NCBI GenBank assembly: GCA_944388705.1
Contig: CALXJU010000013.1
Coordinates: 1 to 38,793, forward strand
DNA length: 38,793 nucleotides
Reading direction: 5' to 3'
Source: an uncultured Clostridia bacterium
GTDB lineage: Bacteria > Bacillota > Clostridia > TANB77 > CAG-508
The position numbers and the translations under genes were made by a program. Positions 1 to 20,968 of the stretch are shown one piece after another; position 1 is the stretch's first letter, and the number at the start of each line of letters is the position of its first letter. The notes below the pieces were generated by a model. It did not search any database. It saw only the letters and a program-made list of their open reading frames with translations, and was not told where the DNA came from.

Positions 1-92
<92 letters not shown>

Positions 93-277: not shown

Positions 278-295
278 GATATAGGAGTGTATGAG

Positions 296-656: not shown

Positions 657-657
657 A

Positions 658-1653: not shown

Positions 1654-1790
1654 ATGTATATATGGGTATATGGTTCTTATGCTAAGAAAAAGCAAAAAAA
1701 GAATAGTGATATAGATATTATAGTTAGAACAGAAGATGTATCAGAAGGATTTAAGATAGTAGAAGTAAAATTTGCATTAGTAAATGATTC
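1654..1790 (+). pseudogene. remnant of a minimal nucleotidyltransferase (MNT)
   Basis: The reading frame from ATG 1654 begins almost directly at the family's signature: VYGSYAKKK, then NSDIDIIV, i.e. the GSxAxx...SDxD nucleotide- and metal-binding motif of pol-beta-type minimal nucleotidyltransferases. The helix of roughly 20-25 residues that normally precedes GS is missing, there is no ribosome binding site, and the downstream part of the frame runs into a terminator hairpin (1798-1821). Both ends are therefore lost. MNT proteins usually pair with HEPN or DUF partners as toxin-antitoxin systems. Confidence 0.7.
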
Positions 1791-1797
1791 AAAGCGG

Positions 1798-1829
1798 AAA
1801 GTGTGGAAAAATCCACACTTTTTCGTTTT
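1798..1829 (+). terminator. intrinsic terminator downstream of fic
   Basis: A 10-bp perfect stem aaagtgtgga (1798-1807) with tccacacttt (1812-1821), loop aaaa, followed by ttcgttttt. It probably ends the fic transcript. Confidence 0.8.
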
Positions 1830-1944
1830 TACAGGTGAAATAACAATATATCAATTACCAACAATTCCCGGTTGAAAAGGTAAAAAAAGCATGGTAGAAA
1901 TTAATTGTTATGTAAACAAAAGAAAAAGGGGGAAGTATATAAAA

Positions 1945-2298: not shown

Positions 2299-2327
2299 TT
2301 GCAAGAAATTTTCAAATAGTATATAAT
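2299..2327 (+). promoter_or_regulatory. sigma-A-type promoter of the first pilin gene
   Basis: TTGCAA (2299-2304), a 17-bp spacer, then TATAAT (2322-2327), 39 bp before the start codon. The same TTGCAA-17-TATAAT pair precedes the SRP RNA and recurs at the end of the window, so it is probably a normal strong promoter in this organism. Confidence 0.8.
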
Positions 2328-2366
2328 TAGAATAATAGCGTGAAAATAGCTTAGGTAGGTGGTGTT

Positions 2367-2840
2367 ATGAAAAAAAATAAATTTGCAAAAAAAGTATTAT
2401 TAACTATAATAATATTTATAATGATGATATTAACAAATAATATAGAAACTTTTGCTAGGAATGATTTTTCAGAAAATAAATTTTCTAATGAAGATTTTAT
2501 AATGATAACCGAACTTTCAGATACAGGATTTAAAGATCCTACAGAAGATCCGGATTATTGGAATCCAAATAAAGATCAAAATGGGCAGGAAATAACTCAA
2601 GATGAGCCAGAATTATTAAATAAAGCTGGAATATTATTAGGAGTTATAAGTGTATTAGGAGTAGTTTCAGCAGTAATTGCTTTAGTTTTATTAGGAATGA
2701 AATATTTTATTGGAAGTGTAGAGGAAAAAGCAGACATTAAAAAATCTTTATGGATATATATATTAGGAATAGTGTTATTAGTTGCATGTACAACTGTACC
2801 TAATATAATATTTAACCTTTCACAGGGTGTGTTTAAATAA
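2367..2840 (+). CDS. VirB2-like T4SS pilin paralogue 1
   Basis: A 157-residue protein. It has an N-terminal signal sequence ending near TFA (about residue 30), an acidic extracytoplasmic segment (about 31-85), then two hydrophobic helices (about 88-112 and 130-150) joined by a short charged loop. The helix-loop motif LGMKYFIGSVEEKADIKK is shared with the next two genes (GxKYxxGSxEExAxxK), so the three are paralogues. This two-helix topology is that of the TrbC/VirB2 pilin superfamily, whose subunits polymerise into the conjugation pilus. The N-terminal acidic extension is longer than in the other two paralogues. It has its own promoter upstream and an aggtgg-type ribosome site. The family assignment is inferred from topology and context. 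Confidence 0.8.
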   Translation: MKKNKFAKKVLLTIIIFIMMILTNNIETFARNDFSENKFSNEDFIMITELSDTGFKDPTEDPDYWNPNKDQNGQEITQDEPELLNKAGILLGVISVLGVVSAVIALVLLGMKYFIGSVEEKADIKKSLWIYILGIVLLVACTTVPNIIFNLSQGVFK

Positions 2841-2844
2841 AAAA

Positions 2845-2873
2845 TTGACGAATAAACAAATATAATGTATAAT
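2845..2873 (+). promoter_or_regulatory. promoter of the second pilin gene
   Basis: TTGACG (2845-2850), 17-bp spacer, TATAAT (2868-2873), placed in the 56-bp gap between pilin genes 1 and 2. The second and third pilin genes can therefore be transcribed independently of the first. Confidence 0.8.
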
Positions 2874-2896
2874 AATATAGAGGGGAGTTGATTATA

Positions 2897-3307
2897 ATGA
2901 AACATATTTCCCTAGTACTAATAAAAATATTAATGATAATTATTATAATGAATTTAATTTTTTTACCAATTAGTGAAGCAAGTTTTTGGGGAGATATTTT
3001 CAGCGAGGGAGATGAGTTCTTAAAAAACGGAGAAGACCAAACTAATCCAGACGATGGGTCTGAACCAATAGATAATGCTAAATTGAAAGAAGAAGTAAAT
3101 AGATTATATAATATATTATTAACATTAGGTATTGTACTTTCTGTACTAGTTGGAGCAATATTAGGAATAAAATATATGTTTGGAAGTATAGAAGAACAGG
3201 CAAAAGTAAAAGAAACTTTATTTCCGTATTTAATAGGGTGTATAGTAGTATTTTCAGCATTTGCAATATGGAAAATAGTTGTTAATGTATTATCAAAAAT
3301 ATCATAG
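2897..3307 (+). CDS. VirB2-like T4SS pilin paralogue 2
   Basis: A 136-residue protein. The ATG at 2897 was chosen because aggggag (2881-2887) lies 9 nt before it; an in-frame TTG at 2888 would overlap the spacing. The signal sequence ends near SEA, followed by a short acidic stretch rich in Asp/Asn, then two transmembrane helices (about 72-94 and 108-130) around ILGIKYMFGSIEEQAKVK. This is the same pilin-like motif as in its neighbours. It probably serves as a major or minor pilus subunit, or as a membrane component of the channel. No terminator follows before the third pilin gene, so the two may be co-transcribed. Confidence 0.8.
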   Translation: MKHISLVLIKILMIIIIMNLIFLPISEASFWGDIFSEGDEFLKNGEDQTNPDDGSEPIDNAKLKEEVNRLYNILLTLGIVLSVLVGAILGIKYMFGSIEEQAKVKETLFPYLIGCIVVFSAFAIWKIVVNVLSKIS

Positions 3308-3369
3308 TAGTTATTTAAATTCTGGGAAACCAGATTTCAATAAATAAAAATATAAAAGGAGGAGAAAAA

Positions 3370-3762
3370 ATGAGTGTTAAAACACAAAAAATATTAGTAT
3401 TTATAGCAACAATATTATTAGTATTTTCTTTAGGAGCAAATGTAGTATTAGCAGCTTCAGGTAGTAGTACTGGAGGAGGTTTAATAACCCCTGGCGATAT
3501 TGAAGCAACGCCACCAGAAGGAGATGAAATACAAGATGTTGGTGGAAGAATACTAGGTGTATTACAAACAGTAGGTGTTATTTTAGCAGTAATCATATTA
3601 GTAGTATTAGGTATAAAATATATGATGGGTAGTGCTGAAGAAAAAGCTGAATACAAGAAAACAATGATACCATATCTTGTTGGTGCAGTATTTATATTTG
3701 CAGCTCCAATACTTGCTAACATAGTTTATAACTTTGTAAAAAGTTTAGGTGGTAACGAGTAA
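3370..3762 (+). CDS. VirB2-like T4SS pilin paralogue 3
   Basis: A 130-residue protein with a strong aaaggaggag ribosome site. The signal sequence ends near VLA (about residue 28), followed by a glycine/serine-rich segment and two hydrophobic helices (about 62-85 and 98-120) around LGIKYMMGSAEEKAEYKK. It is the most compact and canonical of the three pilin paralogues. A strong terminator directly downstream sets the pilin block off from the channel genes, an arrangement that would let pilin be made in excess. The role is inferred from TrbC/VirB2-like topology and the adjacent PrgI and VirB4 genes. Confidence 0.85.
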   Translation: MSVKTQKILVFIATILLVFSLGANVVLAASGSSTGGGLITPGDIEATPPEGDEIQDVGGRILGVLQTVGVILAVIILVVLGIKYMMGSAEEKAEYKKTMIPYLVGAVFIFAAPILANIVYNFVKSLGGNE

Positions 3763-3796
3763 TTAATAGCTTAAAGTATAAAATAAAACAAAAATA

Positions 3797-3838
3797 AAAA
3801 AAAAACGATAAATACTTCCATTTATCGTTTTTTTTTGT
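3797..3838 (+). terminator. strong terminator closing the pilin block
   Basis: A stem of up to 16 bp (3797-3812 with 3821-3836, core acgataaa/tttatcgt), 8-nt loop, and a run of nine or more T. It separates the pilin genes from prgI-virB4. A TATAAT at 3839-3844 just after it may serve the next unit, but its -35 is unclear. Confidence 0.9.
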
Positions 3839-3882
3839 TATAATATAATAGAATGATTATAAGATAAACTAAGGAGGAAAAA

Positions 3883-4221
3883 ATGGGAACTTATAATTTA
3901 CCAAGAAATGTAAAAGGAGAAGGAAGAATTTTATTTATATTTTCATCAAAATCACTAGTTACAACTGCTATAGGAGGAGCTGCGGGCTTAATATTTTATC
4001 TTATATTTTCTGCAATAGGATTATCTATAGTTGGTATTGTAATAACATTAATTTTTGCTTTTATAGGATATGCAATAGGAATGATGAAAGTTCCAGATAC
4101 AGGAGGATTAGAAATAACACGAAAAACTGGTGGAGAAAATATTGATGATATTATAAAAAGATATATAAAATTTAAAAAAAATAATAAAAAATTATATGTT
4201 TATACAAAGGAGGAAAAATAG
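3883..4221 (+). CDS. PrgI-family protein (VirB3-like)
   Basis: A 112-residue protein. It opens with the PrgI-type N-terminus (YNLPRNVKGEGRILFIFS), then two hydrophobic helices (about 25-45 and 48-70), then a hydrophilic tail. PrgI-family proteins of Gram-positive conjugative elements correspond to VirB3, a small inner-membrane protein that works with the VirB4 ATPase, and some systems fuse the two. Its TAG stop abuts the ATG of the next gene, with that gene's aaggagg inside its 3' end, so translation is coupled. It heads the channel-gene operon that runs to 11067. Confidence 0.9.
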   Translation: MGTYNLPRNVKGEGRILFIFSSKSLVTTAIGGAAGLIFYLIFSAIGLSIVGIVITLIFAFIGYAIGMMKVPDTGGLEITRKTGGENIDDIIKRYIKFKKNNKKLYVYTKEEK

Positions 4222-5421
4222 ATGAATAGTGAATCAACAACACGATTAATAGAAATGTTAATTTATATATTAGTTCCTATAGTAATAGCAATATTTATAT
4301 TAATAGCATTTTTAATATATATTCATTTCAAAGAAAAAAGAAAAAGAACCCCTAAAATAACCGAAAAATCAAATACAAATGTATCAACAAACGAGCAAAA
4401 TAAGCAATCAATATTTAATTTTATGGAATTTGATGATGTAGAAGATAGCATGATATCACAAAAAAATGGAACAAGATATTTGATGGTAATTGGATGTCAA
4501 GGAGTAAATTATGATTTAATGTCAAGTGTAGAGAAAAACAGTGTAGAAGAATCTTTTGTTCAATTTTTAAATACACTAAGAAGTCCAATACAAATATACA
4601 TCCAAACAAGATCTATAAATTTAGAAAGTAGCTTACAAGTATATAGAGAAAAATTGAAAGAAATAGATGACAAATATCGTAATATACAAATAAGATATGA
4701 GCAAATGATAAATTCAGGGGATTATGACGAAGAAAGAATTAAAAAAACATACTATGAATTAACAAGATTATCTAATTTACGTGAATATGGAGAATCTGTT
4801 ATACAAGATACTGAAAGAATGAATTTGAATAAAAATATATTAAATAAAAGCTATTATATAGTTGTACCGTATTTTGCTCTAGAAGCAGGAAATGAAAAAA
4901 TGGACAAAGAAGAATTAAAAAATGTTGCTTTTTCTGAATTATATACAAGATGCCAATCAATTATTTCTTCAATAGCTCCATGTGGTGTTAGAGGAAAAAT
5001 ATTAAGAACAAACGAATTAGTAGAGTTATTATATATGGCATATAATAGAGATGAAGCAGAAACATTTGGATTAGATAAAGCTGTTAAAGCAGGATTTAAT
5101 GAATTATATTCAACAGCTGAAGATATATATGAAAAGAAAGCAAGAGAGCTTGATAAAATAATTCAAGAAAAAGCAATGAGAAAAGCAAGAGAAAAAGTAA
5201 ATGAAGCAAAATCAGAAATACAAAGACAAGTAGAAGAAAAAGAAAACAATATGGATTCAATAGTTGATGAAATTGCAAAAATGATACTAGAACAAAATGA
5301 AGAATATTTAGGACAAGAAGTGAAAGATTTAGCTATAGAAAAATTAGAAGAAACTAAAGAACAAGGAGGTAAACAAGATGGCAAAAAAACACGAGGAAGA
5401 AAGAAAACTACAACAGTATAA
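4222..5421 (+). CDS. membrane-anchored VirB4 N-terminal-domain homologue
   Basis: A 399-residue protein. One N-terminal membrane helix (about 9-32) is followed by a linker, then a domain from about 65 to 300 resembling the N-terminal part of VirB4/TraC-type proteins (RYLMVIGCQGVNYDLMS, then FLNTLRSPIQIYIQTRS). A charged, probably coiled-coil region (about 300-375) and a Lys/Arg tail (KKTRGRKK) follow. There is no Walker A or B, so it is not an ATPase. The next gene encodes a complete VirB4 with its own N-domain; this protein is therefore an extra, tethered copy of the non-catalytic half and perhaps a docking platform. Its 3' end overlaps virB4 by 44 bp in another frame. Confidence 0.75.
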   Translation: MNSESTTRLIEMLIYILVPIVIAIFILIAFLIYIHFKEKRKRTPKITEKSNTNVSTNEQNKQSIFNFMEFDDVEDSMISQKNGTRYLMVIGCQGVNYDLMSSVEKNSVEESFVQFLNTLRSPIQIYIQTRSINLESSLQVYREKLKEIDDKYRNIQIRYEQMINSGDYDEERIKKTYYELTRLSNLREYGESVIQDTERMNLNKNILNKSYYIVVPYFALEAGNEKMDKEELKNVAFSELYTRCQSIISSIAPCGVRGKILRTNELVELLYMAYNRDEAETFGLDKAVKAGFNELYSTAEDIYEKKARELDKIIQEKAMRKAREKVNEAKSEIQRQVEEKENNMDSIVDEIAKMILEQNEEYLGQEVKDLAIEKLEETKEQGGKQDGKKTRGRKKTTTV

Positions 5422-7336
5422 TGATGAAAATAATGTTCAATTCTTAAAAAGACAAAATATAAAAGAATTGATTGCACCTTCAGGAATAGATGCAAGAGAT
5501 ATAGACCATTTGGAAATAATTTCAAATGTAAAAAAATATGCAAGAAGTTTCTTTGTTTCAACATTACCAAGAATGTGTACCTTCCCAAAACTATTTAGAG
5601 ATATGTATTTCTTTGGTGATATAAATACATCTATTTATATTACTCCAGTACAAGAAGCAAAATCACAAAGTGAACTAAATAGAGTAATAAATGAGTTAGA
5701 GACAGAAAGAATAGTAGCAGCAGATAAAGGAAATATAAATAGAGAAAGTAATCTTACTCAAAAAAGATTAGAAGCAGAACAATTAAGAGATGAGATTGCA
5801 GCAGGATTTAATAAATTATATGAAGCATCAGTAGTAGCAACAATATTTTCATATAGTTTAGATGACTTAGATAGATTAACAAAATTATTATCAACAGAAA
5901 TGTCTAAATCATTAGTAGGAATAAAAACAGCATGGGCAATGCAAGAAGATGCATTTAAATCTAATTTACCACTAATGGAAGACAAAATAAATAAAAAACA
6001 TACATTTGATAGACGTTCAATGTCAACAGTATTTCCATTTACAACATCTGATGTAAGTCATTCAACAGGAATACCATTAGGTTTTAATAAACAAACTGGA
6101 ACACCAATATTATTTGACAACTTCCACGAATCACTTACAAACTACAATATGGTAATATTTGCTAAATCTGGTGCTGGTAAATCTGTAACAATGAAAACAT
6201 TAATAAGTAGATCATCATTATTAATGGGAATTGAAAGCTTAGCACTAGATGCTGAAGGTGAATATACAATAGTTGCTGAATCATTAGGTGGAATAAATGT
6301 GGTATTAAGTCCTACATCTAAAACAGTAATAAACTTATTTGATATAGAAACAGAAACAGCTAAAGATGAAATAACAGGAAGAGAAAGATTAGTTCTAAAT
6401 ATAGAAAATAAAGTAGAAGATGTAACACAATCTTTATTAACAATGGCAAGAGGTAGTACAAGAAGTAAAGATGTAAATGAGTTAACTAAACAAATTATTG
6501 CTGAATCTGTCGCAGAAGAATATGCAGGAATGGGAATTACAAGTGATCCAAATAGTTTATATGAATCTGCAAATAGTTTTAATAGAAATGATAAATTATA
6601 TAGAGAAAAGAAAAAGATGCCTACAATTGGTTCTTGGTATAAAAGAATTCAAAGAAAAGCTACAGAAAATACAAATGAAGATTATAGATTCCATTACAGT
6701 TATCTATTAAAAGTAATGAAACAATATATAAGAGAATATAATGGTCAGATGGCATATTTTGATGGACAATCAACATTTGAATTACTAGAAGGAGCACCAT
6801 TTATAAATTTGAATATTTCCCAACTAGAAGAAAAATTTGCAAGACCACTTGCTCAACAAATTCTTCTAACATGGATTTGGGAAAAATTTGTTAAGAAAAA
6901 TAGTGAAGATAGAAGAAGAGCTAGAAAGAAAAGAGTTATAGTTGATGAAGCATGGATGTTATTACCATATCCAGAAGCTGTAGATTTCTTAAATACTATG
7001 GCAAGACGTGCAAGAAAAAGAAATGTATCATTAGCAGTAGTTTCACAAAGATTTCAAGATTTTTATGAAAAACCAGAAGCTCAAGCAGTTCTTACATCAT
7101 CTGATACAAAATTGTTCTTAGCTCAAGATAAATCAGAAATACAATATTTAAAAGAAGTATTTAAATTAAGTGAAGGAGAAGCAGGATTTTTAGTAACTTG
7201 TGGAAAAGGTGAAGGTCTATTTAAGGTTGGACAAGAATCAGCAATATTAAAGATAACTCCAACACAAAAAGAATTTGAATTTGTAGAAACAAATTTAAAT
7301 AAATTAATAGAAACAAGAAGTAGAAGAGAAAATTAA
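5378..7336 (+). CDS. VirB4-family T4SS ATPase
   Basis: A 652-residue motor ATPase. The ATG at 5378 follows aaggagg inside the previous gene. An N-terminal VirB4 domain (about 1-230, including RSFFVSTLPR) precedes the RecA-like domain with Walker A KSGAGKSVTMKT (about 262-273) and Walker B RVIVDEAWMLL (about 518-528); ARKRNVSLAVVSQ beyond it matches the family's sensor region. Length and motifs fit Gram-positive VirB4/TraE-type ATPases such as the CD1110 family. VirB4 powers pilus assembly and substrate movement at the inner membrane. Its intact motifs argue that the locus is, or was until recently, functional. Confidence 0.95.
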   Translation: MAKKHEEERKLQQYNDENNVQFLKRQNIKELIAPSGIDARDIDHLEIISNVKKYARSFFVSTLPRMCTFPKLFRDMYFFGDINTSIYITPVQEAKSQSELNRVINELETERIVAADKGNINRESNLTQKRLEAEQLRDEIAAGFNKLYEASVVATIFSYSLDDLDRLTKLLSTEMSKSLVGIKTAWAMQEDAFKSNLPLMEDKINKKHTFDRRSMSTVFPFTTSDVSHSTGIPLGFNKQTGTPILFDNFHESLTNYNMVIFAKSGAGKSVTMKTLISRSSLLMGIESLALDAEGEYTIVAESLGGINVVLSPTSKTVINLFDIETETAKDEITGRERLVLNIENKVEDVTQSLLTMARGSTRSKDVNELTKQIIAESVAEEYAGMGITSDPNSLYESANSFNRNDKLYREKKKMPTIGSWYKRIQRKATENTNEDYRFHYSYLLKVMKQYIREYNGQMAYFDGQSTFELLEGAPFINLNISQLEEKFARPLAQQILLTWIWEKFVKKNSEDRRRARKKRVIVDEAWMLLPYPEAVDFLNTMARRARKRNVSLAVVSQRFQDFYEKPEAQAVLTSSDTKLFLAQDKSEIQYLKEVFKLSEGEAGFLVTCGKGEGLFKVGQESAILKITPTQKEFEFVETNLNKLIETRSRREN

Positions 7337-7349
7337 GAGGAGTAGGAAA

Positions 7350-10091
7350 ATGAGTTTTTTTACAAATAAGAAGTTTTTATTTAAGTTAATAGCTTCAATA
7401 TGCATATTTTTAACATTGTTTAATTTTACCATGCCGCTTAAAGCTCATGCCGCAGGACAATTATCAAAAATAGGAGGACAATTATTAGACCCATTTGTGG
7501 ACTTATTATCAGCTTTAGGTGATGGGGCAATGGAAATTGTTCAAAATTCAATAATGGGGACAGATGCAACAGTTATATTTGATAATACAGAAGGAGGATG
7601 GTTTGCAAAATTAGCAAAAGCAATTATTGCTATAGTTGTAGCTGTTGCAGCAGTAGCAGTTCTTATTAGCTTAAACTTACTTGGTGCAGTTATACTTGCG
7701 GCAGTAAAAGTAGCAGCGGGATTTGTTGTTGTAAATACATTAACAGATGGAGGTGCAATGGCAGCAATTTCTGGAGTAAGTGCAACAGTTTTTTCTGATA
7801 ATATTGTAATGCCATTATATTCAATAGGGCCAGAAGAAATTTTTACAGGAAGAGTATTACTATTTGACCCTAATATATTTGATCCGGAAGAAGTATTTGT
7901 AGAATATCAAGAAAACCCAGATGAACAAATTGACTCAGAAGAAGAATATCCAACAATGAGTTTAGAAGAATGGGATGAACAGTTACAAAGTGAAAATCCA
8001 AAATATACTACAGAAAATGTAATTCAATATTATTATGAAGATGAAAATGGAGAAAAAATTACTACATCAACAAATAATTCGGCTTATCAATTAAAAGATA
8101 TAATTGCAAAATGGTATTATATAATTAGAAATATAGCAATTATTGGATTAATGCTAGTATTGGTATATGTAGGAATAAGAATGTTATTAACAAGTATAGC
8201 TTCAGAAAAAGCAAAATATAAGCAAATGCTTTTTGACTGGGTTGTTGCTATGTGTCTAGTTTTTGTATTACATTATTTTATGGTATTTGCAAATCATTTT
8301 GTTGATAATCTAGTATCAATATTTTCAAGTACAGCAGAGACAAAAATGCATATTGTTTCTATCAAGGAACCATCAGACAAACTAAAAGAAGCTGTAGAAG
8401 AAGTTAATCCAGATTATATTGCAAGTGATGGTAGTATAGTATGGCCAACAAATATGATGGGTAAAATTAGAGTAGAAGCACAATTACATTCAGGTGAATC
8501 AAATTATATAGGATATGCACTTTGTTATATTGTATTGGTATTTTATACAGCATTTTTCACATTTACATATTTAAAGAGGTTATTATATTTGATGTTTTTA
8601 ACTGTAATAGCACCACTTGTAGCATTAAGTTATCCTATAGATAAAATACGAGATGGGAATGCACAAGCCTTTGAAATGTGGATGAAAGAATATACAATAA
8701 ACTTATTGATACAACCATTCCATTTATTATTATATATTATATTTATAAGTATGGCATTTGATTTAGCAGGAACAAATATTATATATTCTTTAGTGGTGAT
8801 AGGATTCATGATACCAGCAGAGAAGTTTTTAAGAAAAATGTTTGGATTTGATAAAGCTTCATCACCAGGATTTTTAGCTGGAGCAGGAGGAGCTGCTATG
8901 GCAATAACAGCAGTAAAATCTTTAGCTAACTTTGCTTCAGGTGGAAAAGGTTCAAATAAACAAAGTGGAAGTGGAAGTGGAAATAATAAGATACAACAAG
9001 CGCAAAATCCTGAATTGGAAGGTGGTTTAACAGGAAACAGTTTACAAGAATTATTGGATGCCACTGTTAGTGGAAATGGAGGAGCAGGAAATCCTGAGGG
9101 AGCAGGAAACCCTGGAGGAGCAGGAACCCCAGGAGGAGCAGGAAGTCCTGGAGCATCTGGAGGCTTTGGAGCATCAGGAAATCCAGGAGCACCTGGAGAT
9201 TCTAATGGAACAGGAAATGATTCTAATAATCCAATAAGATTTACAAATGAAAATGGAGACATAACACCAGCTTCTGTTGCAATGGGATTAGGACAAACGG
9301 CCGTAAGAGGGGCTCAAGGTGCAGCTACAGGACTTAAAAATGTAGGAACACAGATGGGTTCTAATATAAAAAATAGCCAATATGTAAGAAAATTATCAAA
9401 AATACCAGGTGTTAATTATGCTGGAGCAAGGATTAAAAATATGGCAAGAAGAACTTTTACAAAAGAAAATTTAGCAGCAGGAGCTAAGAAGACAATTAGA
9501 GGTGTTGCAAAATACGGTTTAGGAGCAACAGGAGCTATGCTAGGTGCAGCAGCAGGAATTGCATCAGGAAGCCCAGGAGATACATTAAAATATGGAATTG
9601 CTGGAGCATATGCTTCTTCAGCAATTGGCACAGGTATGACAGATAGAATAGTAAACGGATTTTCTTCAATGGTAAGTAATGAACAACAGCTACATGATGA
9701 AGCAAAGAGAACTCAACTAGGAGAAGAAGAATATAAAAAGTGGAAAGAAGAACAAAATAGAAAAGCTTTTGTAAACAATGCTCAAGAAAGAAGAAAAATT
9801 GCAAAAGAATTTAATATTAAAGATAAAGAACAACTTGATAATATGATGAACCATGCTTGGCAATATAAAAAATGGAATGTTAAAGATGATAAGGTAATGA
9901 TAGAAGCAATGAAATTAAATAAAGATAATCCATCTGATATAAATAATATAGCAGCTGCAAGATTTGCTCAAATGTCAAAAGATGAAAAAAGTTTGGAAAC
10001 AAATATGAAAAGATATGGAAAAGTTAGTGGGGTAACACAAGACAAAGTAAATGATATGGAACAAAGAATTAGACAAATAAATGATATGTAA
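7350..10091 (+). CDS. VirB6/TrbL-like polytopic membrane channel protein with collagen-like segment
   Basis: A 913-residue protein. Signal sequence 1-35 (ending AHAA), then a long hydrophobic region near 85-130, an acidic extracytoplasmic segment (about 170-250), and hydrophobic helices near 258-282, 290-316, 388-412, 413-430 and 452-495. This is the VirB6/TrbL arrangement of an inner-membrane channel core. The region GIRMLLTSIASEKAKYKQ (about 271-288) resembles the pilin motif GxKYxxGSxEEKAxYK. After the last helix comes a cytoplasmic or exported Gly-rich tail: Gly/Ser linker, collagen-like Gly-x-y stretch (about 577-620), an Ala/Gly-rich region, and a charged helical C-terminus (about 780-913). 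It lies in the operon directly after virB4. Confidence 0.85.
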   Translation: MSFFTNKKFLFKLIASICIFLTLFNFTMPLKAHAAGQLSKIGGQLLDPFVDLLSALGDGAMEIVQNSIMGTDATVIFDNTEGGWFAKLAKAIIAIVVAVAAVAVLISLNLLGAVILAAVKVAAGFVVVNTLTDGGAMAAISGVSATVFSDNIVMPLYSIGPEEIFTGRVLLFDPNIFDPEEVFVEYQENPDEQIDSEEEYPTMSLEEWDEQLQSENPKYTTENVIQYYYEDENGEKITTSTNNSAYQLKDIIAKWYYIIRNIAIIGLMLVLVYVGIRMLLTSIASEKAKYKQMLFDWVVAMCLVFVLHYFMVFANHFVDNLVSIFSSTAETKMHIVSIKEPSDKLKEAVEEVNPDYIASDGSIVWPTNMMGKIRVEAQLHSGESNYIGYALCYIVLVFYTAFFTFTYLKRLLYLMFLTVIAPLVALSYPIDKIRDGNAQAFEMWMKEYTINLLIQPFHLLLYIIFISMAFDLAGTNIIYSLVVIGFMIPAEKFLRKMFGFDKASSPGFLAGAGGAAMAITAVKSLANFASGGKGSNKQSGSGSGNNKIQQAQNPELEGGLTGNSLQELLDATVSGNGGAGNPEGAGNPGGAGTPGGAGSPGASGGFGASGNPGAPGDSNGTGNDSNNPIRFTNENGDITPASVAMGLGQTAVRGAQGAATGLKNVGTQMGSNIKNSQYVRKLSKIPGVNYAGARIKNMARRTFTKENLAAGAKKTIRGVAKYGLGATGAMLGAAAGIASGSPGDTLKYGIAGAYASSAIGTGMTDRIVNGFSSMVSNEQQLHDEAKRTQLGEEEYKKWKEEQNRKAFVNNAQERRKIAKEFNIKDKEQLDNMMNHAWQYKKWNVKDDKVMIEAMKLNKDNPSDINNIAAARFAQMSKDEKSLETNMKRYGKVSGVTQDKVNDMEQRIRQINDM
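9079..9210 (+). repeat. collagen-like GC-richer repeat within the virB6-like gene
   Basis: Degenerate repeats of 9-15 bases of the type ggaggagcaggaa/atcctg encode alternating GGAGNP, GGAGTP and GASG units. The stretch is visibly richer in G and C than its surroundings. Such repeats tend to change copy number by slippage; the one-residue-in-three Gly pattern is approximate rather than strict. Confidence 0.8.
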
Positions 10092-10119
10092 TTACTTATT
10101 TTGAAAGGAGAATTATAAT

Positions 10120-11067
10120 ATGCATAAATTGAGAAAATTTTATTATGATAATAAATATAAAATATGGGGTATTATAGCATTTATAATTCTTCTTATTGGA
10201 ATTATACAAGTTACTAATGCAATATTAGCTAATAATAATAAATTAAATAATAATACAGTAGAGAAAAATGTTATTGAAAATATAAACAGTGAAAATAAAG
10301 ATACTTATTTTTCTACAGATGAGTCAGTTGTATCAGGAGAAAAAATTGATTCTAATAAACTAGAAAAGGCAAGTAAGGCAATAGAAGAATTTATATCAGA
10401 ATGTAATAATGGGAATATAGAAAAAGCATATAATTTATTAACAGATGATTGTAAAAACGAAATGTATCAAGATATAGAAAAATTTACAAATTATTATTAT
10501 AATCAAATTTTTAATAATAATACTAAAAAAACTGCTATAATAGAAAATTGGATTTTAAACACTTATAAAGTAACCATTTCAGATGATATAATGGCAACAG
10601 GAGGAGTATCAACGACTAATGTTCAGGATTATATTACAGTGATAGAAGATGATGATATATTGAAGATATCTTTAAATAATTATATAGGAAAAGAAGAAAT
10701 AAATAAAGTACAGGTAGTAAATGATATTGAATTTGAAATAGTAGAAAAAGATGTGTATATGGATTATGAAATATATACGATTAAAGTTAACAATAATACA
10801 GAAAATAATATAGTTTTAGATGATTTAACTAATACAAAATCAATTTACTTGGAAGATAATAATGGAGTTAAACATTATGCTAAAAGTAGTGAAATTATTC
10901 CTAATTTATTGAAAATTAATAAAGGATTTTCAACGCAAATAGATATTAAATTTAATAGAACTCTTACAGATGAATCTATAGAAATTAATTCAATTGTATT
11001 TTCAGCAGTTAAATTCAATACTAATCAAGAAGAACAACAAAAACAAGTAATAAAAATTGATTTATAA
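10120..11067 (+). CDS. VirB8/TcpC-like bitopic protein with NTF2-like domain
   Basis: A 315-residue protein with an aaaggag site. A short basic N-terminus and one membrane helix (about 14-34) are followed by an Asn-rich linker and an extracytoplasmic domain. The segment from about residue 80 (AIEEFISECNNGNIEKAYNLL, then FTNYYYNQIF) has the helix-helix-strand pattern of NTF2-like folds used by VirB8/TcpC scaffold proteins; a beta-rich domain follows (about 200-310). Position after the VirB6-like gene supports a VirB8-type role in the wall-spanning part of the channel. It is the last gene of the channel operon and ends in a terminator. Sequence identity to known VirB8 proteins cannot be judged by eye. 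Confidence 0.65.
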   Translation: MHKLRKFYYDNKYKIWGIIAFIILLIGIIQVTNAILANNNKLNNNTVEKNVIENINSENKDTYFSTDESVVSGEKIDSNKLEKASKAIEEFISECNNGNIEKAYNLLTDDCKNEMYQDIEKFTNYYYNQIFNNNTKKTAIIENWILNTYKVTISDDIMATGGVSTTNVQDYITVIEDDDILKISLNNYIGKEEINKVQVVNDIEFEIVEKDVYMDYEIYTIKVNNNTENNIVLDDLTNTKSIYLEDNNGVKHYAKSSEIIPNLLKINKGFSTQIDIKFNRTLTDESIEINSIVFSAVKFNTNQEEQQKQVIKIDL

Positions 11068-11096
11068 AATTGCATTTTTTAATGCAATTTTTTTTA
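11066..11096 (+). terminator. terminator after the VirB8-like gene
   Basis: Stem aaaattgcatt (11066-11076) with aatgcaatttt (11081-11091), TTTT loop, then a T run. It overlaps the stop codon. The following gene has a TATAAT at 11141-11146 in the gap but no good -35. Confidence 0.85.
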
Positions 11097-11178
11097 AGAA
11101 AATTAAGTCTAAAATTATAGAAATAAAAAAATAAATATGTTATAATTAAGTAAATAATGTCTAAAAAGAGGTGAAATT

Positions 11179-14094
11179 GTGGAAAAAGATAACGGCTTAT
11201 TATCACAAAAAACCAAACAGAGAATAAAAAGAATAATCTTAAGTATATTAAGTAAATTACTAATAATTTCAATGCCAATTATTGTGATTTTATCAATAAT
11301 TTCTGCTGCAATTTGGTATATAAATGAAGAAGAGGGAACTTGGAGAGATGATGAAAAAGGAAATCCAGGAATGTATACAAATAATACAACACTTTCATCA
11401 ACAAATGGAATAGAAGTAGACAAAGAAAAATTAATAAAAGAGGCTCTTTTGAGTAAAGGATATTCACAAGAACGAATAGACAGTATGACAGAACAAGAAA
11501 TTATAATAGCTTTAGACATTCAAAATAAATTAAAGAAGACAGTAACAAGTATAAATGAACTTACACATGCAGAAATTTTATGGTGTACAAATGAGATATA
11601 TTCTAAATATTTAAAAAAACCAGAAGATTTACAGAAATTATTAGATGCTGAACTTATAACTCAATATCCTAAAATAGACGGCTTACAGGAAGGAAAACTA
11701 AATGGAATTGTTGAATTTGTTAGATATTCAACTAATCCAGATACTAATCAAGAAGAAGTAAGAACTTTAAAATGGATTTCAACAGAAGAATTTACAAATA
11801 AGATGACAGCATACCAAGAGACAGGAAATACTGATATATTAAATTATTTTACTTTGGATGAAAGTGGTAATGTAAAAATAGCAACGTGGATGAGAGAAGA
11901 AGGAAGTTTTTATAGTAATGATACAACACTTCAAACAGATAGAAAAAAAATTAGAGGTGGCACAACAGGAGAGGCTGTTACAAGTAATTATGATTCTAGA
12001 TATACTATAACAAAAAATGATGCAGCATCTATAGAAGCAACTTATGTTACATATATAATACAAGAAACACTTATTGACTATAAACCAATGATACAAAAAT
12101 ACACTTTACCATTTGAATATTTGTGGGCATTATTAGTTACAACGAAAAGTGATGACTTTGTATTAAATTTGGCAGATTTGGTATATAATTCTGAAATAAA
12201 AATAGGAATATATGATAATATAAGTAAAACAGTAAATACAGATATAGAAAAATATAGAGAAGAATTTAGAGAGAAATATGAAGAATATGAAGACGGAAGT
12301 TTAGTCGAAAAGAGACCATCAGATAAAGAATGGGATACAGAAGAATATGATTATGAAATAAGAAACGTAATTACTACATATGATGAAAATATACAATATG
12401 AGTTATTATATGCTAATACGTGGATTGTAGAAGTTTCTACTCAATATGAAAATACTATTACTGCTCAAGAACCGACTAGTGATATAAATTCTGATTTGGA
12501 TGAAAATTGGACTGATGACATATCTCCAAATCCATATGTTAAAACTTGGACAAGAACAGAACCGCATACAGATCCTGTTGATGGAAGTACTTATACAGAG
12601 ACAATTAATTGTAAAAGTAATTTGTATAAATATAAAAGAACAATAAACCATGAATATATATCAGAGAGAGTTTCTACAATTAGTAAATATCAAAAATTAC
12701 CTACACAAAATCTTAGAGAGAAAACTGATACAGATGAGAATACTGATAACAATTTTGTTAAAATTGCAATAAAGGATGCAAATGCAACCACAGCTTTTGC
12801 TAATTTAGGAACAGTGAATCTATTAAAAAATATACTCGAAAACAGCTCAAATACAAAAGATATGGTACCTTTGACAAAACACTTAATCTATAAAATTACT
12901 AAAAATGAAAATTATAATATTAACTTTAGTTTTTCTTATTATGAATCTATAGCATCTTTTAATACAATATCGAATGGAATTTATGGAGGAAATATACAAG
13001 AAAAAGTTTGGTTTGCATTAAAAGATTTAGGACTTAGTGATATCGCAGTGGCAGGAGCTATGGGAAATATTCATTATGAATCAGGTTCATTTAATCCAAC
13101 ATTAGTAGAAGGTGGATACACTGAAGATAATGGAGGAATAGGACTTTGCCAATGGACAAATTATCCACGTAACAGCGGAAAAGGAAGAAATGCTCAATTA
13201 AAAGCATATGCAGCTTCTAAAGGAACGACATGGCAAGATGAAGATACTCAAGTTGAATTTTTGGTGGCAGAATTAACAAATGGTAATGGATTTGCTGAAA
13301 AACAATTACTTACTTCTTCATCGTCTTATGATGGAGTAAGACATAACCCATCAGAATGGAAGGATGCAGAGGATGTAGAAGTAGCTACAAGAGTATTTTG
13401 CTACTGTTTTGAAAGACCTAATGCAGATGCAGCAAGAAGCAGTATGAATACAAGAATAGAATATGCAAAAATGTACTTGGCAGAGTTTTCTGGAAGAGAA
13501 AAACCAGTAGGTTCGAGCGAAGATTATGCGAATGCAGATAAAGTAACAGTTATGGGATATACATTTCCACATTATTATCAACGTAATTATGCATATAGAA
13601 TGTATGGAGTACCAGGTAAAACGATAAGTAGTTCTGGATGTGGACCAACAAGTATGGCAATGATTGTTGCAGGATTAACAAAAGATCAAACAGTCAATCC
13701 AGATAGTTTTGTAACAGCATTAGAAAATTATTTTCCAAATTATACTAGTTATTATGCTAATGGAGCAGGAAGTATATATGAAGGAATTTGTAATAGTAGA
13801 TTTCTACAAACATTTTATAATTTAAAATCTAGGTTATATCCGAGCTACGAAGAAACACTTACAGCTTTAGCGGAAGGAAAATGTGCTATTGCTAGAGTAG
13901 AAGGACACGTATTAGCACTTGTTCCAGTAACTGAAGAACAAAGACAACAAGGATACGTATTCTATGTAATGGATTCTGCATCTGGATTGGATGGACCTTA
14001 CAGAAATCAAGAGGAACTTAGACAAATGGTTAATATAAAAAGACCAGGTAGAGGTTTTGGATTTGCAGTAAAAGCTATTATAGAGCCAATGTAA
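11179..14094 (+). CDS. VirB1-like bifunctional wall hydrolase (phage-type lysozyme plus C39-like peptidase)
   Basis: A 971-residue protein starting at GTG (11179) behind agaggtg; no better ATG is in frame. A membrane helix (about 26-50) anchors a long Glu/Thr/Asn-rich extracytoplasmic region of unknown fold (about 50-590). Near 603-770 is a phage-tail-type lysozyme domain: AGAMGNIHYESGSFNP with the likely catalytic Glu about 633, then GIGLCQW. The C-terminal domain (about 785-971) resembles a C39-family/papain-like cysteine peptidase, with SGCGPTSMAM (Cys about 820) and the His in VEGHVLALVPV (about 909). Gram-positive T4SSs use such paired domains (compare TcpG/Orf14-type VirB1 proteins) to open peptidoglycan for channel assembly. 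It begins a separate transcription unit within the locus. Confidence 0.9.
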   Translation: MEKDNGLLSQKTKQRIKRIILSILSKLLIISMPIIVILSIISAAIWYINEEEGTWRDDEKGNPGMYTNNTTLSSTNGIEVDKEKLIKEALLSKGYSQERIDSMTEQEIIIALDIQNKLKKTVTSINELTHAEILWCTNEIYSKYLKKPEDLQKLLDAELITQYPKIDGLQEGKLNGIVEFVRYSTNPDTNQEEVRTLKWISTEEFTNKMTAYQETGNTDILNYFTLDESGNVKIATWMREEGSFYSNDTTLQTDRKKIRGGTTGEAVTSNYDSRYTITKNDAASIEATYVTYIIQETLIDYKPMIQKYTLPFEYLWALLVTTKSDDFVLNLADLVYNSEIKIGIYDNISKTVNTDIEKYREEFREKYEEYEDGSLVEKRPSDKEWDTEEYDYEIRNVITTYDENIQYELLYANTWIVEVSTQYENTITAQEPTSDINSDLDENWTDDISPNPYVKTWTRTEPHTDPVDGSTYTETINCKSNLYKYKRTINHEYISERVSTISKYQKLPTQNLREKTDTDENTDNNFVKIAIKDANATTAFANLGTVNLLKNILENSSNTKDMVPLTKHLIYKITKNENYNINFSFSYYESIASFNTISNGIYGGNIQEKVWFALKDLGLSDIAVAGAMGNIHYESGSFNPTLVEGGYTEDNGGIGLCQWTNYPRNSGKGRNAQLKAYAASKGTTWQDEDTQVEFLVAELTNGNGFAEKQLLTSSSSYDGVRHNPSEWKDAEDVEVATRVFCYCFERPNADAARSSMNTRIEYAKMYLAEFSGREKPVGSSEDYANADKVTVMGYTFPHYYQRNYAYRMYGVPGKTISSSGCGPTSMAMIVAGLTKDQTVNPDSFVTALENYFPNYTSYYANGAGSIYEGICNSRFLQTFYNLKSRLYPSYEETLTALAEGKCAIARVEGHVLALVPVTEEQRQQGYVFYVMDSASGLDGPYRNQEELRQMVNIKRPGRGFGFAVKAIIEPM

Positions 14095-14107
14095 AAGAGG
14101 TGAATAG

Positions 14108-15412
14108 ATGGATAAATTAAAGAAAATAATTATTATAGCAATTCCAATATTTATTATAATTGCAATAATAATAAGTATAATAATATATTTTTTATTAAAA
14201 AATAATTCTGGCGGAAAGGAGAATCTTCCTCCAGGAGAAATAGAAGAAACATCTCAATATAGTAGAGAAAATTTATCTAAAGTAATGTCACATACTGAAT
14301 TTTATACTGTAGCAAATTCCATACAAATGTATTTAGATTTAATAAATAGAAGAAATACATATAACAGTGATGAAGAATATTTAGATATAATAAATTACAC
14401 TATTATGGAAATATTAAATTCTGATTATATTAATGAAAATCAGATTAATTCAAACAACATTGGGAATTATATTGAGAATATAAATGAAAAGGTAATCTAT
14501 GTTCCTATAAAAATTAGTGGAATAGAACAAAATGATAATATAGTAAGTTATGTGACATACGGATTTATTGAAAATTTAGAAAATGTTTATTTAAAAGATA
14601 TTTATGTAATTGTAAACTTTGATATAATAAATACAACTTTTTCAATTGAGCCATTATTAAATAATACATTAGATATAGAAAATATTGAAGTTAGAAAAAC
14701 TACTCAAAGTGAAATTAAAAAAAATGAAAATAATATTTTTACATATGAAGAAACGAGTCAAGAAAATATTGTAAAAAAATATATTGATACATTTAAAAAA
14801 ATAATTCTAGCAAAACCTGATGTAGCATATGAATTATTAGAAGAGGAATATAAAAAGGCTAGATTTAATAATTTTGAAAAGTTTGAGCAATATGTAAATG
14901 ATAATAAAGATGTAATTCTTTCAACAAGAGCAGAGAAATATTTAGTTGAAAAATCAGATGGTAATACAATATATACGTGTATAGATCAATACCAAAAATA
15001 TTTTATTTTTATAGAAGATGTATATATGGATTATAAAGTAATACTAGACAATTATACATTAGAGAACGAAGAAGATATTGAGAAATATAATGCAATGACT
15101 AATCAAGATAAAATATCTATAAATATACAAAAAATTATTGAAGCAATAAATAACAAAGATTATAATTATGTATATAATAAATTAAATGAACAATATAAAA
15201 ATAATAAATTTCCAAATTTAGAAGAATTTAAAAATTATATAAAAAGTAATTTTTACGATATTAATATATTAAAAGATAGTATGGCAAATATAGATGGAAA
15301 TGTACATATATGTAAAATCAAAATTAGTAATAAACAAAATCAAATAAAAGAAGTAACAATACTTGTTAGATTACTAGAAGGTACAGATTTCGAAATATCT
15401 TTTTCAGAATAA
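14108..15412 (+). CDS. second VirB8-like protein with tandem NTF2-like domains
   Basis: A 434-residue protein, 13 nt after the hydrolase gene. A basic N-terminus and membrane helix (about 5-30) are followed by at least two, possibly three, related extracytoplasmic units. Units near 215-315 (KKYIDTFKKIILAKPDVAYELL...FNNFEKFEQYV) and 333-430 (IQKIIEAINNKDYNYVYNKL...FPNLEEFKNYI) show the same NTF2-like pattern: helix, Y-x-L-L, then a Phe-rich helix. The first unit (about 55-190) is more diverged. It resembles the gene at 10120 in topology and probably forms part of the same scaffold. I do not recognise a named family. Confidence 0.6.
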   Translation: MDKLKKIIIIAIPIFIIIAIIISIIIYFLLKNNSGGKENLPPGEIEETSQYSRENLSKVMSHTEFYTVANSIQMYLDLINRRNTYNSDEEYLDIINYTIMEILNSDYINENQINSNNIGNYIENINEKVIYVPIKISGIEQNDNIVSYVTYGFIENLENVYLKDIYVIVNFDIINTTFSIEPLLNNTLDIENIEVRKTTQSEIKKNENNIFTYEETSQENIVKKYIDTFKKIILAKPDVAYELLEEEYKKARFNNFEKFEQYVNDNKDVILSTRAEKYLVEKSDGNTIYTCIDQYQKYFIFIEDVYMDYKVILDNYTLENEEDIEKYNAMTNQDKISINIQKIIEAINNKDYNYVYNKLNEQYKNNKFPNLEEFKNYIKSNFYDINILKDSMANIDGNVHICKIKISNKQNQIKEVTILVRLLEGTDFEISFSE

Positions 15413-15417
15413 CGGCT

Positions 15418-15476
15418 AAATATCAAAAGTTGAAGAAAAAATTTGAAATTTTCTCTTCAACTTTTGATATTTTTGT
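15418..15476. terminator. bidirectional terminator ending the T4SS locus
   Basis: An 18-bp perfect inverted repeat (15418-15435 with 15455-15472, arm aaatatcaaaagttgaag), with T-rich sequence on the plus side and A-rich sequence before it. It sits between convergent genes and marks the right edge of the T4SS locus. Confidence 0.9.
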
Positions 15477-15916: not shown

Positions 15917-17575
15917 ATGATAAATAATAAAATAAAACATTTAACAAAAATATTTTTAAGAGAATATATAGAAAAATTAAATATAAAAAATGAAAAAAAT
16001 AAAATAAATAAAAAATCATCAACAATATGGTTAGGTGCAATATTAATATTTTGTATAACATATTTAAGTGTATATTTAATAAGTAATTTAGTAAAACAAA
16101 ATACACCAGAAATATTTTTAAAAATGTATTTACCAATAATAGCAATTTTTATGCTATATGAATTAATAATATTAGTATGCAATTTATTTTTCTATTCAAA
16201 AGATATAGAATATATATTACCATTACCATTAAAACCTATTGAATTATTAATTGCAAAAGTATTTACATTAATATTTATAATGTATATGTTAGAGGCAGTA
16301 TTATTAGTTATACCAATGTTTATGTATGGAATATTAGCTGCAGGGACAATAAGATTTTTTATATATGGAATATTTTTTTTAGCAATATTTCCAATATTAT
16401 TTGTTTTAATAATTGGAATTTTAACACTAATATTAAATAAAATATTTGAAAAAATAAAAAATAAAAATATAATACAATTACTAATAATATTTATTTTAAC
16501 AATTTTATTGACAGTAATTTTATTTAATATTTTAAAGGAAAATATTAACCAAATAAATAATACAGAAAATGTAGAAATAATAAATCAAAATCTTGATAAA
16601 ATAGACCAAAATTTAATAATAATAAAACCAATAATAAATTTATTAACAGAAAAAAATATAATAAATAATATTTTTAATATATTTATATTATTATTTATTA
16701 ATTTTATTTTTTATATAATATTTTTATTTACAGGAAAAAAATTATATACTAATAAAATATTAATAAAACAAATGTCAAATAAAATAAGAAATAAAACAGA
16801 AAATAAAATAAAATACAATTATAAAAAACAAAAAAAAGAAATAAAATATTTAAAAATAGAAATTAAAAAAATATTAAAAAATACAACATATTTTACACAA
16901 ACAATATATAATTATATTAATATAATAATTTTAGCATTATTTTTATTAAAGATATTAACACCAATGTTTATAGAACAATTACAAACAGACAATTACATAG
17001 AAAGTGTCGAACTTGAACAAGTAAAAATAGAGGCAACATGTACAGTTTTAGCAATAATACAAATAATATCAACATTTAATAATTTAGCAATGACAGCAAT
17101 ATCTAAAGAAGGAAAAGAAGCAGCATTTATGAAATATATACCAATGTCGCTATATAAACAAATTTTAATAAAAGTAATTCCACAAATTATATTAAATATA
17201 ATTATGAGTTTATTAGTAATAATAGTAATAAATACATGTATTAAAATACCAATTATATATTCAATAATAGTATTTATAACTTCATTATTAATAAATATAA
17301 TATATAGTTTTATAATGATAATAGTAGATATACGAAAACCAAATTTAGATTGGACAAGTATAGAGTCAATTACAAAAAATAATAGTAATAAAATGTATAG
17401 ATATGTAATTACAATTGCAATTGTTTTAATATTTATGTATTTCGCAAAAATATTTAAAAATATGAATTATAATATTGCAATAATAATTATGAATTTTATT
17501 TTAGCAATTATTTTAATAAGTATAAATATTTATATAAAGAAAAATATTAGAAAAATATTTAATAAAATAATTTAA
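15917..17575 (+). CDS. polytopic membrane protein, putative ABC-2-type exporter subunit
   Basis: A 552-residue protein with about a dozen hydrophobic segments. The early DIEYILPLPLKPIELLIAKV motif after the second helix is typical of large ABC-exporter-like permeases of Firmicutes (ABC_export/ABC-2 type), in which this loop precedes the channel helices. A long Asn/Lys-rich loop lies between roughly 200 and 320, and a second bundle fills the C-terminal half. No ATP-binding subunit is adjacent, so the substrate and partner are unknown. Codons are extremely A/T-biased even for this genome. Confidence 0.55.
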   Translation: MINNKIKHLTKIFLREYIEKLNIKNEKNKINKKSSTIWLGAILIFCITYLSVYLISNLVKQNTPEIFLKMYLPIIAIFMLYELIILVCNLFFYSKDIEYILPLPLKPIELLIAKVFTLIFIMYMLEAVLLVIPMFMYGILAAGTIRFFIYGIFFLAIFPILFVLIIGILTLILNKIFEKIKNKNIIQLLIIFILTILLTVILFNILKENINQINNTENVEIINQNLDKIDQNLIIIKPIINLLTEKNIINNIFNIFILLFINFIFYIIFLFTGKKLYTNKILIKQMSNKIRNKTENKIKYNYKKQKKEIKYLKIEIKKILKNTTYFTQTIYNYINIIILALFLLKILTPMFIEQLQTDNYIESVELEQVKIEATCTVLAIIQIISTFNNLAMTAISKEGKEAAFMKYIPMSLYKQILIKVIPQIILNIIMSLLVIIVINTCIKIPIIYSIIVFITSLLINIIYSFIMIIVDIRKPNLDWTSIESITKNNSNKMYRYVITIAIVLIFMYFAKIFKNMNYNIAIIIMNFILAIILISINIYIKKNIRKIFNKII

Positions 17576-18177: not shown

Positions 18178-18179
18178 AA

Positions 18180-20949: not shown

Positions 20950-20968
20950 ATTGTCAAAGGAAAAAATT

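What the first reader, a model, noticed from the sequence alone, without database searches (positions are those of the whole stretch)
2299..15476. A 13-kb type IV secretion locus without relaxase, coupling protein or integrase
Seen: pilins (three), PrgI/VirB3, a VirB4 N-domain homologue, an intact VirB4, VirB6-like, two VirB8-like and a VirB1-like hydrolase lie together, all frames open. No relaxase, VirD4/TcpA-type ATPase, integrase or oriT-like repeat is visible, and core genes begin directly to the right. Known: Gram-positive conjugative elements normally carry those genes together with the channel genes. Inference: this is either a fixed chromosomal export apparatus (protein secretion, DNA release or uptake) or an ICE that lost its mobility module; intact catalytic motifs and separate promoters argue for maintained use.
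Basis: partly seen in the sequence, partly recalled or inferred. Interest (0 to 1): 0.88.

Follow-up and report, generated by a model that had tools for sequence, protein, structure and literature searches.

The report
Resident origin-proximal type IV secretion machine
A 13-kb gene set close to the replication origin of a Clostridia-type bacterium encodes a type IV secretion machine whose key ATPase 218 of 287 sampled species of its order carry, and it is likely a resident device for sending proteins out of the cell rather than a mobile DNA element.

Summary
The locus is real: three pilins, PrgI, a split VirB4, a VirB6-like protein, two membrane-anchored NTF2-fold proteins and a wall hydrolase, all in one direction. 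It does not behave like an ICE. The gene order recurs in relatives; 52 of 54 relatives with enough left flank have it at one of two core addresses, 31 of them downstream of the parA-parB cluster. Strong VirB4 matches occur in 218 of 287 genomes of the order and in none of 373 sampled genomes of the class outside it. VirB4 dN/dS (0.041) equals parB's (0.040). No relaxase or integrase was seen among the flank genes scanned. Closest analogue: the resident, relaxase-less T4SS of Patescibacteria. Protein export is the best guess, unproven; kin DNA exchange is the main rival. In passing: 147 of 287 genomes hold a Walker A pattern with a +1 frameshift at CGG, a very rare codon without a detected tRNA; in all 11 such genes read out it lies in virD4.

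The parts
1..92 (+). tRNA-Ser(tga), left edge of the locus; the contig begins here
   Evidence: in genome G200 two tRNA genes at 238245-238331 and 238380-238468 lie between the module and parB (238556-239407)
137..226 (+). tRNA-Ser(gct)
293..526 (+). DUF6922 protein, part of a variable slot between tRNA-Ser and the module
   Evidence: PF21956 2.9e-17
640..1647 (+). Fic/DOC protein with winged helix (variable slot, probably not part of the machine)
   Evidence: PF02661 3e-21
1654..1875 (+). short nucleotidyltransferase-domain ORF (variable slot)
   Evidence: PF01909 1.4e-7
2367..2840 (+). pilin 1 (VirB2-type)
   Evidence: PF18895 9.7e-6, just under cut-off
2888..3307 (+). pilin 2 (VirB2-type)
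   Evidence: TrbC 3e-6, T4SS_pilin 3.4e-5, both just under cut-off
3370..3762 (+). pilin 3 (VirB2-type)
   Evidence: PF18895 4e-11, TrbC 6.4e-10
3883..4221 (+). PrgI/VirB3-type membrane protein
   Evidence: PF12666 6.6e-6
4222..5421 (+). separate VirB4 N-terminal half with a membrane helix (helix by eye; TrsD-like)
   Evidence: matches positions 47-293 of NF045975 VirB4 (6.9e-6); found in 79 of 80 relatives
5378..7336 (+). VirB4 ATPase half, overlapping the preceding gene by 44 bases
   Evidence: NF045971 5.7e-60; Walker B VIVDEA
7350..10091 (+). VirB6-like polytopic protein with a glycine-rich 18-nt repeat stretch (9077-9220)
   Evidence: NF045848 3.6e-9; repeats
10120..11067 (+). VirB8-type protein 1: membrane helix, NTF2-like domain, Ig-like beta domain
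11179..14094 (+). VirB1-type membrane-anchored wall hydrolase: lysozyme plus C39-like head
   Evidence: PF18013 7.1e-29; PF13529 7.8e-4, under cut-off
14108..15412 (+). VirB8-type protein 2: membrane helix and, by the order of its helices and strands, three NTF2-like units
15917..17575 (+). ABC-transporter-type membrane protein, right neighbour seen in only a few of the relatives fetched
   Evidence: PF16949 3e-6; 6 loci
17638..38321 (.). core right flank (Germane, rsmI, abrB-like, spmA, spmB, mbl, murA, spoIIR, dnaX, recR, ypeB; names mostly by eye), which in genome G200 leads on to the virD4 block

Best explanation
This is a chromosome-resident type IV translocation machine, found in most sampled species of one order of Clostridia at one of two fixed core addresses (here beside the parA-parB genes near the replication origin), and it likely pushes proteins through the cell wall towards neighbouring cells rather than moving an element of its own. 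Shown: gene content and order, the two addresses, occurrence across the order but not in the sampled rest of the class, purifying selection on VirB4, absence of relaxase and integrase among the flank genes scanned, and a VirD4 coupling ATPase in a fixed dnaJ-u170-virD4 block elsewhere in the same genome. Inferred: PrgI, VirB6 and the split VirB4 (a membrane-bound N half plus a soluble ATPase half) form the membrane pump; the two NTF2-fold proteins and the pilins build the wall-spanning part; the anchored hydrolase opens peptidoglycan, and since its catalytic domains differ from relative to relative, part of the wall it meets may be foreign. VirD4, helped by the co-encoded DnaJ and the 170-aa protein, is predicted to select and unfold the cargo. 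The nature of the cargo is the least certain step.
For: Same module order in the genome-contig relatives fetched (80 loci; many cut by contig ends). 52 of 54 loci with at least 2.5 kb of left flank lie at one of two core addresses: 31 with parB, 21 with two M16 peptidase genes and no parB; 2 elsewhere; 26 too short to tell. Own parB lies at the very end of contig C14, so the own copy also appears to sit at the parB address. VirB4 E below 1e-100 in 218 of 287 genomes of the order (my count of the listing) and in 0 of 373 sampled genomes of the class outside it; the best plasmid VirB4s listed are about 32% identical and none reaches 60%; no close relative in viral contigs. dN/dS own versus closest relative: VirB4 0.041, parB 0.040, mnmG 0.061. 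VirD4: 279 of 287 genomes at E up to 1e-3, 269 of them below 1e-90 by my count; dnaJ-u170-virD4 in 19 of 19 other genomes looked at; T4SS-DNA_transf 3.5e-87. PF03432 relaxase not found in 48 of 71 genomes with strong VirB4, no association (Fisher p 0.80). Hydrolase heads: 14 Pfam families over 44 proteins.
Against: No substrate, effector or activity was identified. VirD4 is also kept where the module is missing (G129, G033, G016: VirB4 matches only 1e-34 to 1e-39, no module after parB), so it may serve the second T4SS-like cluster, or both. The module tree agrees with a parA+parB+rsmG tree only in part: Mantel r 0.58 (highest of 2000 permutations 0.23), but 10 of 25 splits are shared, 9 of 18 supported core splits and 8 of 19 supported module splits are contradicted, so the module has probably been exchanged among relatives. 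dS of pilin 1, VirB6, NTF2 protein 1 and hydrolase (0.67-0.90) exceeds that of parB, mnmG and rsmG (0.24-0.41), again pointing to recombination. Neighbouring tRNA-Ser genes are typical ICE targets (recalled).
Confidence: 0.5

Rival explanations
1. A resident DNA-exchange machine: it exports or imports chromosomal DNA between kin without a relaxase, as the archaeal Ced/Ted systems do.
For: VirD4 carries a DNA-transfer-type domain; sbcD-sbcC (Mre11-Rad50 type, named by eye) follow virD4 in 9 of 19 other genomes and in the own one (two of the 19 stretches end right after virD4), and the Ted paper reports co-occurrence with Rad50 and a HerA-like helicase in some genera (passages of PMC9905601). 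Domesticated VirB4/VirB6/VirB2 systems that lack relaxases are known there.
Against: Ced/Ted have no VirD4-plus-DnaJ block that I know of (recalled). Fast-evolving pilins, VirB6 and hydrolase heads fit contact with varied partners better than kin exchange. sbcCD adjacency is not constant.
Confidence: 0.25
2. A helper conjugation channel: it still conjugates, using relaxases supplied in trans by integrated mobilizable elements.
For: PF03432 relaxases occur in 32 of 95 genomes searched and one fragment lies on own contig C52; VirD4 is intact.
Against: 48 of 71 genomes with strong VirB4 have no PF03432 match and the two are not associated. Other relaxase families were not searched.
Confidence: 0.1
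3. A decayed ICE remnant: an element that inserted at tRNA-Ser, lost its mobility module and is on its way out.
For: tRNA-Ser neighbours; a variable slot with Fic, AbiEii-like and HipA-like genes near the module; empty parB sites in G129 and G033.
Against: Intact frames and motifs, VirB4 dN/dS 0.041, strong VirB4 in 218 of 287 genomes, two core addresses that largely follow clades of the VirB4 tree; the only direct repeat bracketing the module (19 of 21 bases, AT-rich; 15 shuffles reach 18) has no clear counterpart in the closest relative.
Confidence: 0.07

Closest known systems
Resident T4SS of Patescibacteria (PMC12102498; abstract, passages, section 14 and first part of section 13 read)
   Same: Separate VirB4 N-half (TrsD), PrgI, VirB4, VirB6, several VirB2-like pilins, wall hydrolases, mostly no linked relaxase, coupling protein encoded far away, chromosomal and in some classes near the origin genes.
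   Different: Here two NTF2/VirB8-type proteins are regular members (rarely detected in Patescibacteria by that paper), the VirD4 block is fixed with dnaJ, the host is a Clostridia order not known to me as an epibiont, and no VirB4 tree joining the two was made here.
Gram-positive MPF_FATA conjugation systems of ICEs and plasmids (CTn2/CD1110, pCF10, pGO1 types)
   Same: Homologous VirB4, VirB6, PrgI and anchored VirB1; NCBIfam ICE models match below their cut-offs.
   Different: No relaxase or integrase found beside it, fixed core addresses, restricted to one order in the samples searched, about 32% identity to the nearest plasmid VirB4s listed.
Archaeal Ced/Ted DNA-import systems (PMC9905601, passages read)
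   Same: Domesticated VirB4/VirB6/VirB2 machine on the chromosome without relaxase; Rad50-type genes nearby in some genomes.
   Different: Bacterial; has VirD4, PrgI, NTF2 proteins and wall hydrolase; DNA transport not shown.
Streptococcus suis T4SS-like system (recalled; only cited titles seen in PMC12102498)
   Same: Gram-positive chromosomal T4SS linked to protein export.
   Different: Island-borne and strain-specific as I recall it, not order-wide.

Membership tests
ICE / conjugative element (MPF_FATA) | VirB4, VirB6 and VirB3/PrgI channel genes | tested here: met
ICE / conjugative element (MPF_FATA) | relaxase linked to the channel genes | tested here: not met
   none seen in the window, and none among 85 of 104 unclustered flank ORFs of at least 110 aa in relatives (84 of 92 family rows visible); own genome has one PF03432 hit, on a separate 4.9-kb contig
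ICE / conjugative element (MPF_FATA) | integrase and att repeats | tested here: not met
   no integrase family among the rows visible; only a 19-of-21 AT-rich repeat without clear counterpart in the closest relative
ICE / conjugative element (MPF_FATA) | sporadic occurrence and varied insertion sites | tested here: not met
   218 of 287 genomes of the order; 52 of 54 loci at two core addresses
Patescibacteria-type resident T4SS | separate VirB4 N-half beside VirB4 | tested here: met
Patescibacteria-type resident T4SS | coupling protein far from virB4, no linked relaxase | tested here: met
Patescibacteria-type resident T4SS | near the replication origin | tested here: met
   parA-parB adjacent; dnaA-like gene (by eye) at about 9 kb on own contig C14; for relatives at the M16 address this was not tested
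Patescibacteria-type resident T4SS | VirB4 falls in the Patescibacteria VirB4 clade | not tested
Patescibacteria-type resident T4SS | needed for epibiotic growth on a host cell | not testable with these tools
   needs experiment
Ced/Ted DNA import | VirB4/VirB6/VirB2 machine on the chromosome without relaxase | tested here: met
Ced/Ted DNA import | transports cellular DNA | not testable with these tools
   needs experiment
VirB8 (NTF2-fold T4SS protein) | N-terminal membrane helix plus NTF2-like domain | tested here: met
   the fold is shared with penicillin-binding proteins, so the VirB8 identity is inferred from context

The most novel reading that the evidence does not exclude
An order of Clostridia has made a conjugation machine its own: a resident envelope-piercing device whose hydrolase carries interchangeable heads to cut other cells' walls. 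In half of the order its coupling ATPase is gated by translation: a CGG codon, which the cell seems unable to read, sits inside the ATP-binding loop, and only ribosomes that slip +1 onto the following glycine codon make the enzyme, tying secretion to ribosome or tRNA state.
Probability: 0.4. Interest if true: 0.88.

Novelty: new variant of a known kind. Interest (0 to 1): 0.73.

Why it matters
Non-conjugative Gram-positive T4SSs are hardly known outside Patescibacteria and a few streptococci (partly recalled). One that runs through an order of common uncultured Clostridia, with a separately fixed coupling ATPase and varying wall-cutting heads, makes the question 'what do resident monoderm T4SSs move?' testable. 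The recurrent +1 frameshift at CGG in the same ATPase would, if confirmed, be a bacterial case of frameshifting at an unreadable sense codon.

Tried and rejected

Absences are partly artefacts: of 13 genomes with no VirB4 of either kind, 12 also lack a strong parB match, and the contig of the one that has it ends 697 bases after parB, so these MAGs seem to lack that region. Of 18 genomes with a weak VirB4 match that I checked (out of 55 weak ones), 11 have a strong parB; only three of those contigs run on for 15 kb or more, and all three lack the module there.

Full report

Where it sits. The window is the whole of contig C13 of a 1.60-Mb, 65-contig genome, 95.84% complete. Its left end is two tRNA-Ser genes. 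In the closest relative (L006, whose contig has the length of G200:C1) mnmE-mnmG-rsmG-parA-parB lie just before the module, and own parB lies at bases 191-1042 of contig C14, at that contig's end. Of 80 relatives fetched by VirB4, 54 have at least 2.5 kb of left flank: 31 have parB there, 21 have two M16 peptidase genes and no parB, 2 lie elsewhere; 26 are too short. The M16 address is nearly one clade of the VirB4 tree. Names of core genes are my reading of the sequences unless a Pfam call is cited.

How widespread. VirB4 matches in 273 of 287 genomes of the order at E up to 1e-3, and in 218 at E below 1e-100 (my count of the listing, done); the weaker matches may be other VirB4s. In a class-wide sample of 391 genomes 15 pass 1e-100; all 15 are among the 18 listed as belonging to this order, so 0 of the 373 others (356 genomes without a match are not listed by name). 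No plasmid record reaches 60% identity and the best listed are near 32%. Some absences are missing data: 12 of 13 genomes without any VirB4 hit also lack a strong parB match, and in the 13th the contig stops 697 bases after parB. Others are real: in G129 and G033 parB and a DUF4446-type gene are followed, within 18 kb, by genes of the window's right flank (Germane-type gene, rsmI, abrB, spmA, spmB) without the module.

Coupling protein. The own genome has a VirD4 (673 aa, T4SS-DNA_transf 3.5e-87) on contig C37. It matches in 279 of 287 genomes of the order at E up to 1e-3, 269 of them below 1e-90. In 19 of 19 other genomes whose VirD4 region I fetched, the order dnaJ - 170-aa protein - virD4 holds, with murF, ypeB, sbcD, sbcC, prfA or pcrA around it in many of them. 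In G200 one contig links module and virD4, about 38 kb between virB4 and virD4, through rsmI, murA, dnaX, recR and ypeB, the genes of the window's right part; own virD4 is therefore expected a few kb past the window's right end. At least 16 other genomes show both genes on one contig, 27-58 kb apart start to start. VirD4 is also present in genomes that lack the module but keep the second VirB4 (G129, G033, G016), and in G042, which has the module but only a weak match to the second VirB4, so its partner is not settled.

Selection. Own against the closest relative, dN/dS is 0.041 for VirB4, 0.158 for VirB4-N, 0.157 for PrgI, 0.115 for VirD4, but 0.43-0.48 for pilins, 0.47 for VirB6, 0.42 and 0.31 for the NTF2 proteins and 0.36 for the hydrolase; parB 0.040, mnmG 0.061, rsmG 0.111. 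Raised dS in several module genes suggests recombination. In 28 loci (27 relatives and the own one; relatives without a parA or rsmG frame in the stretch were dropped) module and parA+parB+rsmG distances correlate (Mantel r 0.58; none of 2000 permutations above 0.23), yet only 10 of 25 splits are shared and 9 of 18 supported core splits are contradicted. I read this as resident, mostly inherited, with exchange among relatives and losses.

Mobility genes. Flank ORFs of at least 110 aa outside the recurrent clusters numbered 104; 85 were scanned, the other 19 were left out (mostly cut by a contig or stretch end, or dropped after a coordinate failure; three are long frames of L035 and L067). No relaxase or integrase appears in the 84 of 92 family rows visible; two transposase-type families, a reverse transcriptase and toxin-antitoxin-type genes do. 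PF03432 relaxases are in 32 of 95 genomes; 48 of 71 with strong VirB4 have none; no association (p 0.80). Other relaxase families were not searched.

Function. The hydrolase differs strongly among relatives: 44 proteins (own included, out of 54 at hand) carry 14 Pfam families, among them lysozyme (18), amidase (9), NlpC/P60 (7), glucosaminidase (7), GDSL (7), M23 (6), beta-lactamase-like (5), C39 (4) and CHAP (4). With fast-evolving pilins this fits a device that meets varied walls. Together with VirD4 next to DnaJ I judge protein export most likely, kin DNA exchange second; neither is shown.

Comparison. The closest known system is the Patescibacteria T4SS (PMC12102498: abstract, passages, section 14 and part 1 of section 13), which shares the separate VirB4 N-half, PrgI, VirB6, pilins, hydrolases, lack of linked relaxase, distant coupling protein and, in some classes, origin proximity; VirB8 proteins are rarely detected there. 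Ced/Ted (PMC9905601, passages) is the precedent for domesticated DNA transport.

Frameshift seen in passing. Own virD4 reads GTC GGA GGT TCA through the Walker A; 147 of 287 genomes of the order (22 of 45 genera; 0 with the control pattern read backwards) hold a pattern in which a CGG codon stands there, so that the zero frame stops a few codons on. I did not tie each of the 147 matches to virD4. In the 11 genes with this pattern that I read out, and in L119, whose CGG comes four codons later and which the pattern misses, 156-171 codons are open before it and at least 494 after it, and a +1 slip gives VVG|GSGSGKS or a close variant. The downstream part is conserved (pN 0.11-0.13 against pS 0.49-0.52 in four pairs). 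CGG is among the rarest codons: 10 of 40,217 in the shifted loci, shift sites included where the frame was counted, and 7 of 81,113 in the others. In G170 (shifted) and G200 (not shifted) tRNA-Arg anticodons ACG, TCT and CCT were found but not CCG, among 31 and 29 distinct tRNAs; those lists are incomplete (no Ala or Ile, one stretch unread).

Noticed in passing
relatives' virD4: L115-L119, L122-L128; pattern in 147 of 287 genomes of the order: Conserved +1 frameshift at GGA CGG N inside the Walker A region of VirD4; both frames open over nearly full length, downstream part under purifying selection, CGG extremely rare. The own genome lacks it.
   Followed up: partly
G170 and G200 tRNA genes (L158-L220): Only 31 and 29 distinct tRNAs were read; tRNA-Arg with ACG, TCT and CCT but no CCG, so CGG may be unreadable. 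A second, divergent tRNA-Gly(TCC) with loop CTTCCGA is present in both.
   Followed up: partly
own contig C14 (L098:8507-10267; L099:6925-9765): A second T4SS-like set near gyrB/gyrA: VirB4 of 586 aa, VirD4-like of 449 aa, a weakly VirB6-like protein, and by eye a pilin-like and a PrgI-like frame; VirB4 of this type matches in 272 of 287 genomes at E up to 1e-3, in part cross-matches.
   Followed up: partly
own contig C25 (L097:9087-11408): A further coupling-protein-like ATPase (773 aa) among core genes (obg, dacF by eye); its spread was not tested because one search did not complete.
   Followed up: no
own contig C14 (L098:16747-18486; L099:115-1126): A reverse transcriptase with an Avd-like partner (by eye) near a pilin-like protein with an FGE-sulfatase domain, suggesting a diversity-generating retroelement. 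L077 has a reverse transcriptase near the module.
   Followed up: no
hydrolase gene, window 11179-14094 and 43 relatives: One conserved position carries very different wall-cutting domains (14 Pfam families over 44 proteins).
   Followed up: partly
window 293-1875: Variable slot between tRNA-Ser and the module: DUF6922, Fic and nucleotidyltransferase here; AbiEii-like and HipA-like genes in relatives' flanks.
   Followed up: partly
window 9077-9220: Glycine-rich repeats of 18-nt period inside the VirB6-like gene.
   Followed up: no
genomes G059, G091, G093, G121, G138 and others: 12 MAGs rated 86-99% complete lack a strong parB match as well as both VirB4 genes, as if the origin-proximal segment had been lost in assembly or binning.
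   Followed up: partly
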